Source: Methanoregula sp. (GTDB lineage Archaea; Halobacteriota; Methanomicrobia; Methanomicrobiales; Methanospirillaceae). Taken from it: 64,000 bases of DNA. A model generated the notes under the pieces. The model was not told where the DNA came from and made no database searches. It saw only the letters and a program-made list of their open reading frames with translations. A program made the translations under genes and the position numbers. Shown piece by piece: positions 23,785-36,779 of the stretch. Where the stretch lies: contig CP112999.1 in NCBI GenBank assembly GCA_026625165.1, positions 372,001 through 436,000 on the forward strand. The letters are read 5' to 3'. Position 1 is the first letter of the stretch. Each line of letters opens with the position of its first letter.

Positions 23785-23857
23785 GCCGCCATAACTCAGT
23801 TGGTAGAGTGGCTGGCTGTTAACCAGCATGTCACAGGTTCGAGTCCTGTTGGCGGCG
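23785..23857 (+). tRNA. tRNA-Asn (GTT)
   Basis: Cloverleaf with acceptor GCCGCCA/TGGCGGC, anticodon stem GCTGG/CCAGC, loop CTGTTAA with GTT at 23818-23820, and T-loop TTCGAGT. The discriminator is G at 23857 and no CCA is encoded. It lies 4 bp before the next tRNA. Confidence 0.95.
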
Positions 23858-23861
23858 TTAT

Positions 23862-23936
23862 GGGCCCGTAGCTCAGTCCGGTTAGAGCGCCCGGCTCATA
23901 ACCGGGCGGTCATGCGTTCGAATCGCATCGGGCCCA
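23862..23936 (+). tRNA. tRNA with CAT anticodon, probably tRNA-Ile2
   Basis: Acceptor GGGCCCG/CGGGCCC, anticodon stem CCCGG/CCGGG with loop CTCATAA, T-arm ATGCG/CGCAT, discriminator A. The acceptor stem, anticodon stem, T-arm and discriminator are identical to tRNA-Ile(GAT) at 36706-36779, so this is more likely the AUA-decoding isoleucine tRNA (agmatidine-modified CAU) than elongator Met. Confidence 0.85.
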
Positions 23937-23998
23937 TTTTTTTTATTATGAATTTTAATTCGCAACCTTTTCAATGACCAAAGTTCAAAGCAAGCATT

Positions 23999-25027
23999 AT
24001 GAAGTGCCCGGTCTGCGAGATGGACTGTGTGAAGTCTGCAAAGGACATCCTCGCATCACTCCCGACAATTTTTCTACCCTGTGCAGAGTGCAACGCCCGC
24101 GTCCTTGATAAACGTGTCCCTCTTCCTGATCTCTCCTACGGCCTGCCCTGCTCCTGCGGAAAACGGTTCATCGACGAAGTCTTTGCACACATGTATGTCA
24201 TCATGGTGGAACAGGGAGACCTGAAACCCACAGACCCGCTCATCGCAGTAGGGACGCCGCTTGTCAACCCGGGCTATGCAATGGAACGCCCCCCGTTCCT
24301 CCCGGAGAAATCCCTTGTCCTGCTTTCCCCCCGGGTCACCAAACCGGCCGCGGATATTTTGATAAAAGACGTGCCGGAGCTGCGAGGTGTCGTAAAGTCT
24401 GACAATTTCACGCCCGGTATTGCCGATCCCGATCTCAACTCGGTTCCAAAAGTGTATGATCTTCTCGCAGGCTGCGATGTCAGGGCGGATGTCTTTCCCT
24501 TATGGACCGGCCCGCTTGTAATGTATAAACAACAGTCGCTGATCCATATAGAATTCCCCCGGGGCAACGACCTGAAAATCCGTGCTGTTGAAAAGCGTGT
24601 CGGCAAACCGCCTGTTAAGGATTTTGTTGACGCATGTTCCGGCGCCGGGACGCTGGGCCTCACGGCAGCATGCATGGGCGTCCCCCACGTGGTCATGAAC
24701 GACGCATGGTATGCATCGGCATTCTGGTCAGCGTTCAACCTCGAAGTGAACCGGGACTACCTCAAACTCAACAAGATAAAGATATACGAGCAGTACCAGG
24801 ATATGCAGAAGCACCCGGTCGCAAAGGAACCTCTAAAAATCGCGGAGACCGAGGGAGAGCAGGTCATTGAAGTCTATCAGGGCGACTTCAGGTTGTTACA
24901 CAGGGTATTGCCAGCGGGCAGCCCACTGACCGCGATCGATATTTTCGATAAAAATGACAAAGAGAAGATCGACTCGATCCAGAAAGAATGGCTGGAAAAA
25001 GTGGGCGGCGAGGTTTTCATCCCTTAA
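23999..25027 (+). CDS. Zinc-ribbon protein with methyltransferase-like domain, hypothetical
   Basis: 342 residues. The N-terminus has Cys pairs CPVCEMDC, CAEC and CSCG that would form one or two zinc ribbons. From about residue 205 a SAM-binding-like Rossmann pattern appears: FVDACSGAGTLGL resembles motif I of class I methyltransferases, followed by an acidic strand end in VVMNDAWY. No catalytic NPPY or DPPY motif was seen, so the target is unclear. It could be a methanogen-specific RNA or protein methyltransferase. It lies between the tRNA pair and the 7S RNA. Confidence 0.72.
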   Translation: MKCPVCEMDCVKSAKDILASLPTIFLPCAECNARVLDKRVPLPDLSYGLPCSCGKRFIDEVFAHMYVIMVEQGDLKPTDPLIAVGTPLVNPGYAMERPPFLPEKSLVLLSPRVTKPAADILIKDVPELRGVVKSDNFTPGIADPDLNSVPKVYDLLAGCDVRADVFPLWTGPLVMYKQQSLIHIEFPRGNDLKIRAVEKRVGKPPVKDFVDACSGAGTLGLTAACMGVPHVVMNDAWYASAFWSAFNLEVNRDYLKLNKIKIYEQYQDMQKHPVAKEPLKIAETEGEQVIEVYQGDFRLLHRVLPAGSPLTAIDIFDKNDKEKIDSIQKEWLEKVGGEVFIP

Positions 25028-25124
25028 AACCCTTTAAGTTCCCGTAATCCGGTAAAAGTCCATCATTGAAAAAGGGAGCCCCGCAGGTACAAAGCCTTTT
25101 TTCCCGCAATTGACAAAGGTATAT

Positions 25125-25431
25125 GGGGACTAGCCCGGGTGGTTCGGCGTCACCTGTAACCTGAAACCGTCGGTATGCCGGGGGCGAAGTTTGACCGAGG
25201 CTGCAACGACCTGCTGGAACCGGTATGTCCTGACTGTGAAACCTCGTCCCATGAGGTCGATGGACAGGGATTAAAATTCCGGAGGGAATGGCAACCTGTT
25301 GCTGCGGGGACCGGTTCAGGCCCGGAAGGGAGCAGACTTACCGTAGACATCCGGCGCCCATGGGGTAACGGGGCAGAGGATGGATGTGCTGGTGAAAGCA
25401 GTAACGTACAGTCGACCGATAACGCGTCCCC
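25125..25431 (+). ncRNA. Signal recognition particle 7S RNA
   Basis: About 307 nt. Helix 1 is formed by GGGGAC (25125-25130) with GTCCCC (25426-25431). The helix 8 signature reads CAGG-CCCGGAAGGG-AGCAG (around 25318-25335), with the GGAA tetraloop and asymmetric loop that bind SRP54. The size fits archaeal SRP RNA. A long reading frame across it (from 25175) is an artefact. Confidence 0.95.
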
Positions 25432-25444
25432 ATTTACGATTATT

Positions 25445-36705: not shown

Positions 36706-36779
36706 TGGGCCCGATGCGATTCGAACGCATGACCTCCCGGTTATCAGCCGGGCGCACCACCGGGCTATGCTACGGGCCC
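36706..36779 (-). tRNA. tRNA-Ile (GAT)
   Basis: Minus-strand cloverleaf of 74 nt: acceptor GGGCCCG/CGGGCCC, anticodon loop CTGATAA with GAT (36743-36745), T-loop TTCGAAT, discriminator A. Its acceptor, anticodon stem and T-arm are identical to the CAT tRNA at 23862-23936. Confidence 0.95.

What the first reader, a model, noticed from the sequence alone, without database searches (positions are those of the whole stretch)
23862..23936. CAT-anticodon tRNA that shares its acceptor, anticodon stem and T-arm with tRNA-Ile(GAT)
Acceptor GGGCCCG, anticodon stem CCCGG, T-arm ATGCG and discriminator A are identical in the two tRNAs. Elongator tRNA-Met would not be expected to match tRNA-Ile in all of these. 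The gene is therefore likely the AUA-decoding tRNA-Ile2, modified by TiaS with agmatidine, and would be mislabelled as Met by anticodon alone.
Basis: partly seen in the sequence, partly recalled or inferred. Interest (0 to 1): 0.5.

Follow-up and report, generated by a model that had tools for sequence, protein, structure and literature searches.

The report
Ordinary archaeal AUA-reading isoleucine tRNA
The gene looks like a methionine tRNA by its anticodon but is almost certainly the standard archaeal isoleucine tRNA for the codon AUA; it matters for correct annotation and is otherwise ordinary.

Summary
The CAT tRNA at 23862-23936 (+) matches the one tRNA-Ile(GAT) found in the genome at all 35 compared positions (acceptor, anticodon stem, T-stem, discriminator), the best of 561 tRNA pairs; it matches elongator tRNA-Met at 19 and initiator at 13. 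With the anticodon masked it scores 58.2 bits on an Ile(GAT) profile, 19.0 on elongator Met and 1.5 on initiator Met. Two other CAT tRNAs were found in the single-contig genome: an intron-containing elongator Met and an initiator. No Ile(TAT) was found. A TiaS gene and a pyruvoyl arginine decarboxylase are present; no TilS match reaches its family cut-off. AUA is used (141 of 1099 Ile codons in 35 long window ORFs). This is tRNA-Ile2, most likely with agmatidine at position 34, a known kind; orthologues were found in 29 of 31 genomes. In passing: the elongator tRNA-Met genes examined in this order lack the canonical T-loop.

The parts
23862..23936 (+). tRNA-Ile2(CAT), AUA-decoding isoleucine tRNA; labelled tRNA-Met(cat) by ARAGORN
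   Evidence: RF00005 70.7 bits; 35/35 stem and discriminator match to Ile(GAT); anticodon-masked profile scores 58.2 Ile / 19.0 Met-e / 1.5 Met-i
23897..23899 (+). anticodon CAT; C34 at 23897 is the predicted agmatidine site
   Evidence: CTCATAA anticodon loop at G000:C1:395895-395901 = window 23895-23901; modification inferred
23785..23857 (+). tRNA-Asn(GTT) directly upstream, 4 bases from the Ile2 gene
   Evidence: a tRNA-Asn lies on the same strand within 1.3 kb upstream in 20 of 29 Ile2 loci (19 of 28, plus the own genome)
23937..23944 (+). run of 8 T directly after the discriminator, possible terminator
   Evidence: sequence; function inferred
36706..36779 (-). tRNA-Ile(GAT), the AUU/AUC-decoding isoacceptor used for comparison

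Best explanation
The gene is tRNA-Ile2(CAU). Its transcript is recognised by TiaS, which joins agmatine to C34. The agmatidine then stops MetRS from charging it, lets IleRS charge it, and makes the anticodon pair with AUA rather than AUG. Shown here: the gene set found, the isotype class, presence of the tiaS and arginine decarboxylase genes, use of AUA. Inferred from published work on other archaea: modification, charging and decoding.
For: Best match among the genome's tRNAs compared is Ile(GAT), 35/35. Anticodon-masked profiles built without this genome prefer Ile over both Met classes in this gene and in 29 of 29 orthologues (own gene included), margin 20.2-46.3 bits. Three CAT tRNAs found: initiator with A1-U72 and a GGG/CCC anticodon stem, elongator with a 36-nt intron, and this one. 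No Ile(TAT) among the 44 Rfam matches, also at E<=10, and no further Ile-like match in the own genome. C4-G69, C29-G41 and U12-A23 in 29 of 29 orthologues; PMC9976931 (passages) prints C4-G69, C29-G41 and a U12 pair (as U12-G23) as minor Ile determinants in E. coli. TiaS_FLD E 1.5e-41; 417-aa ORF matching A. fulgidus TiaS 3amt at E 9.6e-102 (species recalled). ArgDC E 5.3e-61. TiaS_FLD in 30 of 31 genomes. AUA 141 of 1099 Ile codons.
Against: The TiaS ORF scores 401.6 bits on NCBIfam NF040849, below that model's cut-off of 600. G008 has the tRNA but no TiaS_FLD match (85% complete draft). No RNA or charging data. The genome-wide Rfam search did not list tRNA-Trp or tRNA-Tyr, so an intron-containing Ile(TAT) could in principle be missed.
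Confidence: 0.98

Rival explanations
1. The gene is a second elongator tRNA-Met, as ARAGORN labels it, and resembles tRNA-Ile by chance or by a recent anticodon change.
For: The anticodon in the gene is CAT.
Against: 19 of 35 stem and discriminator positions match the elongator against 35 of 35 for Ile; 19.0 against 58.2 bits with the anticodon masked; the class is kept in 29 of 31 genomes, and TiaS_FLD in 30 of 31; AUA would be left without a tRNA among those found.
Confidence: 0.01
2. The gene is a recent copy or gene-conversion product of tRNA-Ile(GAT) with a mutated anticodon, not an established Ile2.
For: Identical acceptor, anticodon stem and T-stem; the two genes lie 12.8 kb apart on opposite strands, and genes 8.6-14.7 kb apart on opposite strands are seen in 13 of the 25 genomes in which both were found.
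Against: Orthologues in 29 genomes of 20 genera; the D-stem pair 12-23 is U-A in 29 of 29 Ile2 and A-U in 25 of 25 Ile(GAT); the T-stem of Ile(GAT) changes (ATGAG, ATGTG) in genomes whose Ile2 stays ATGCG. This is against ongoing conversion of the whole gene; conversion of parts long ago is not excluded. No tree was built.
Confidence: 0.01

Closest known systems
Archaeal tRNA-Ile2(CAU) with agmatidine (Haloarcula marismortui, Archaeoglobus fulgidus, Methanococcus maripaludis)
   Same: CAT gene with Ile-type body, three CAT classes per genome, TiaS present, no Ile(UAU) found; PMC7668247 passages report agmatidine in M. maripaludis tRNA-Ile(CAU), PMC6313347 passages name A. fulgidus and H. marismortui
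   Different: No functional difference found. The stem identity to Ile(GAT) is complete here; it is not complete in 21 of 25 relatives, so it is a likeness of this lineage and not a new feature
Bacterial tRNA-Ile2(CAU) with lysidine (TilS)
   Same: Same decoding solution with a modified C34 (PMC11938285 passages)
   Different: Different enzyme family; the only TilS-like hit in this genome (44.5 bits, cut-off 93.6) scores higher as NcsA (203.4 bits, itself below its cut-off of 500) and passes TIGR00269
tRNA-Ile(UAU) of Nanoarchaeum and Korarchaeum
   Same: Reads AUA
   Different: Other anticodon; not found here. The exception is described in PMC8450103 passages

Membership tests
archaeal tRNA-Ile2(CAU) | CAT anticodon in a full class I cloverleaf | tested here: met
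archaeal tRNA-Ile2(CAU) | Isotype body of Ile, not Met, independent of the anticodon | tested here: met
   anticodon-masked profile scores; stem identity
archaeal tRNA-Ile2(CAU) | Separate initiator and elongator tRNA-Met in the genome | tested here: met
archaeal tRNA-Ile2(CAU) | tiaS in the genome | tested here: met
   PF08489 over its cut-off; PDB 3amt E 9.6e-102; but the NCBIfam TiaS model is matched below its cut-off (401.6 of 600)
archaeal tRNA-Ile2(CAU) | No tRNA-Ile(UAU) | tested here: inconclusive
   none among the 44 Rfam matches and no further Ile-like match; a gene with a long intron could be missed, as tRNA-Trp was
archaeal tRNA-Ile2(CAU) | Agmatidine at C34 | not testable with these tools
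   needs RNA mass spectrometry
archaeal tRNA-Ile2(CAU) | Isoleucine charging and AUA reading | not testable with these tools
   needs charging and ribosome-binding assays
elongator tRNA-Met | Met-e body | tested here: not met
   19.0 bits against 58.2 for Ile
initiator tRNA-Met | A1-U72 and three G-C pairs at the foot of the anticodon stem (recalled; A1-U72 is also named for eukaryotes in PMC8450103 passages) | tested here: not met
   G1-C72 and stem CCCGG; the initiator of this genome is L015

The most novel reading that the evidence does not exclude
The three CAT tRNAs of this order are kept apart by more than the anticodon: a fixed U12-A23 pair marks Ile2 against A12-U23 in Ile(GAT), and the elongator tRNA-Met carries a non-canonical T-loop (U54-G58, A54-U58 or C54-A58) that could act as a barrier to wrong modification or wrong charging.
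Probability: 0.1. Interest if true: 0.45.

Novelty: already known. Interest (0 to 1): 0.12.

Why it matters
It corrects a label that anticodon-only tools get wrong: counted as Met, the genome seems to have two elongator tRNA-Met genes and no tRNA for AUA. PMC6000648 (passages) reports a raised copy number of elongator tRNA-Met in archaea and itself suggests the agmatidine tRNA as a cause.

Tried and rejected
A family query of one codon, made by mistake, failed. A sigma-70 pattern scan around the tRNA gave nothing usable; such patterns do not apply to archaea. The ORF 3' of the tRNA (23999-25027) matched no NCBIfam family at E<=0.001. Gene conversion with Ile(GAT) was considered because the two genes are neighbours in many relatives and set aside; no tree was built. 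A lysidine pathway was considered and rejected. The first stem comparison misplaced the anticodon stem in tRNAs with a four-base variable region and is replaced. A first T-loop script had a wrong acceptor offset and is replaced. Literature searches for the elongator T-loop (10 of 13 and 10 of 18 papers listed) showed general reviews by title; in the passages seen of PMC7912444 no such elongator case appears. That is no proof that it is unreported.

Full report
What is there. The window lies at 372001-436000 of a 2,174,862-base single-contig genome. At 23862-23936 (+) there is a complete class I tRNA with anticodon CAT, four bases after a tRNA-Asn(GTT) and followed by eight T. tRNA-Ile(GAT) lies at 36706-36779 on the other strand.

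Is the likeness more than chance. I compared acceptor, anticodon stem, T-stem and discriminator (35 positions) among 34 class I tRNAs of the genome. Left out before the count: nine Ser and Leu tRNAs (long variable arm) and one intron-containing gene that ARAGORN reads as Asn; the elongator intron was removed. The CAT gene and Ile(GAT) agree at 35 of 35, the top of 561 pairs. The next for the CAT gene is Lys(TTT) at 25; elongator Met has 19 and initiator Met 13. Pairs of different amino acids without this gene: 501, mean 15.7, s.d. 3.9, maximum 30 (one search was an earlier run with a parsing fault in tRNAs with a four-base variable region).

Isotype without the anticodon. From 31 genomes (this one and 30 relatives) I had 29 orthologues of the gene, 25 Ile(GAT), 24 mature elongator and 30 initiator tRNAs, masked positions 34-36 and built profiles without the own genome. 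The own gene scores 58.2 on Ile(GAT), 19.0 on elongator Met, 1.5 on initiator Met. All 29 orthologues prefer Ile over both Met classes, by 20.2 to 46.3 bits. The own-class profile gives 80.3, but that is circular and I do not count it. These are sequence profiles of my own, not the tRNAscan-SE models.

What the likeness means. In 25 genomes with both genes in hand the acceptor is identical in 18, the anticodon stem in 21, the T-stem in 11, and all three in 4. Constant in 29 of 29 Ile2 are C4-G69, C29-G41 and U12-A23; Ile(GAT) has A12-U23 in 25 of 25. PMC9976931 (passages) lists C4-G69, U12-G23 (as printed) and C29-G41 as minor Ile determinants in E. coli. Two of 31 genomes gave no Ile2 orthologue: G009 (no match) and G007 (only a tRNA-Lys); both are drafts of 73-76% completeness.

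Neighbourhood. Ile2 and Ile(GAT) lie 8.6-14.7 kb apart on opposite strands in 13 of the 25 genomes; in 4 (G010, G021, G022, G026) they are far apart on one contig, and in 8 they are on different contigs, so that the distance is unknown. A tRNA-Asn stands within 1.3 kb upstream of Ile2 on the same strand in 20 of 29 (and the own genome).

The rest of the decoding set. Three CAT tRNAs were found: this gene; an initiator at G000:C1:2099944-2100018 with A1-U72 and a GGG/CCC anticodon stem; an elongator at 1411694-1411803 with a 36-base intron after position 37. An intron in Met(CAU) is known elsewhere: PMC7668247 (passages) says that in M. maripaludis and P. furiosus only Met(CAU) and Trp(CCA) tRNAs are transcribed with introns. 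No Ile(TAT) was found among the 44 Rfam matches, also at E<=10. That search did not list tRNA-Trp or tRNA-Tyr, so genes with introns can escape it. A search with this tRNA found only itself, Ile(GAT) and Lys(TTT) in the own genome, which argues against a hidden Ile-like gene. AUA is in use: 141 of 1099 Ile codons in 35 mechanical ORFs of at least 200 codons in the window, present in 31 of them (ORFs not checked as genes).

Enzymes. A 417-aa ORF (G000:C1:181041-182294, minus strand) holds a TiaS_FLD match at 1.5e-41 and matches TiaS chain 3amt over residues 12-413 at 9.6e-102, with the CTTY motif kept (that the first T of it is the autophosphorylated Thr18, and that 3amt is from A. fulgidus, is recalled and not from a call). 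NCBIfam's TiaS model gives 401.6 bits, under its cut-off of 600, which I read as a strict cut-off and not as absence. A pyruvoyl arginine decarboxylase, the expected source of agmatine, is present. The only TilS-like hit is below cut-off, scores higher as NcsA (also below that model's cut-off) and passes TIGR00269. TiaS_FLD is found in 30 of 31 genomes, missing in G008, an 85% complete draft that does have the tRNA.

Known or new. tRNAscan-SE 2.0 (PMC8450103, passages) describes this problem, three classes of CAT tRNA, and separates them in archaea with an estimated 0.4% (1 of 217 genomes) misclassified. The mechanism is summarised in PMC11938285 (passages). This gene is an ordinary member. 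The score is low for that reason.

Side observation. The elongator tRNA-Met of this genome has T-loop ATCGTAA, so A54 and U58 in place of U54-A58. In 24 of 25 relatives' loci resolved the loops are TTCGGAT 17, ATCGTAA 6, CTCGATT 1 (own genome included). In a phylum sample 72 of 146 genomes matched a 14-base anticodon-arm pattern; 70 of the 72 places were read and 69 resolved: the own order (f1-f6) has 0 canonical of 32, family f18 0 of 8, f24 0 of 1, f9 0 of 2, but f7 25 of 25 and f21 1 of 1. The other 74 genomes were not examined, and the patterns favour elongators like this one. Ile2 keeps TTCRA in 29 of 29 and Ile(GAT) in 25 of 25. PMC7668247 (passages) states that U54/A58 can always form in the tRNAs of three archaea. 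I have no test of function.

Noticed in passing
G000:C1:1411694-1411803 (L038); L076-L100, L157-L275, L276-L345: Elongator tRNA-Met of this order lacks the canonical T-loop (U54-U55-C56-R57-A58): 0 of 32 resolved genomes of the order in a phylum sample, mostly TTCGGAT or ATCGTAA, while 25 of 25 genomes of family f7 are canonical.
   Followed up: partly
window 23785-23936 and 36706-36779: Ile2 and Ile(GAT) lie 8.6-14.7 kb apart on opposite strands in 13 of 25 genomes in which both were found (far apart in 4, on different contigs in 8); a tRNA-Asn is upstream of Ile2 within 1.3 kb in 20 of 29 (and own genome).
   Followed up: partly
L024:1378-1485 (own genome): ARAGORN reads an intron-containing gene as Asn(gtt); by eye the anticodon arm fits tRNA-Tyr(GTA) with an intron after position 37.
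   Followed up: no
G005:C58:665-739 and G005:C19:23626-23700: One draft relative has two 99% Ile2 copies on two contigs, one close to a contig end; probably assembly duplication.
   Followed up: no
window 25123-25433: Archaeal SRP RNA, 173.5 bits, about 1.2 kb downstream of the tRNA.
   Followed up: no
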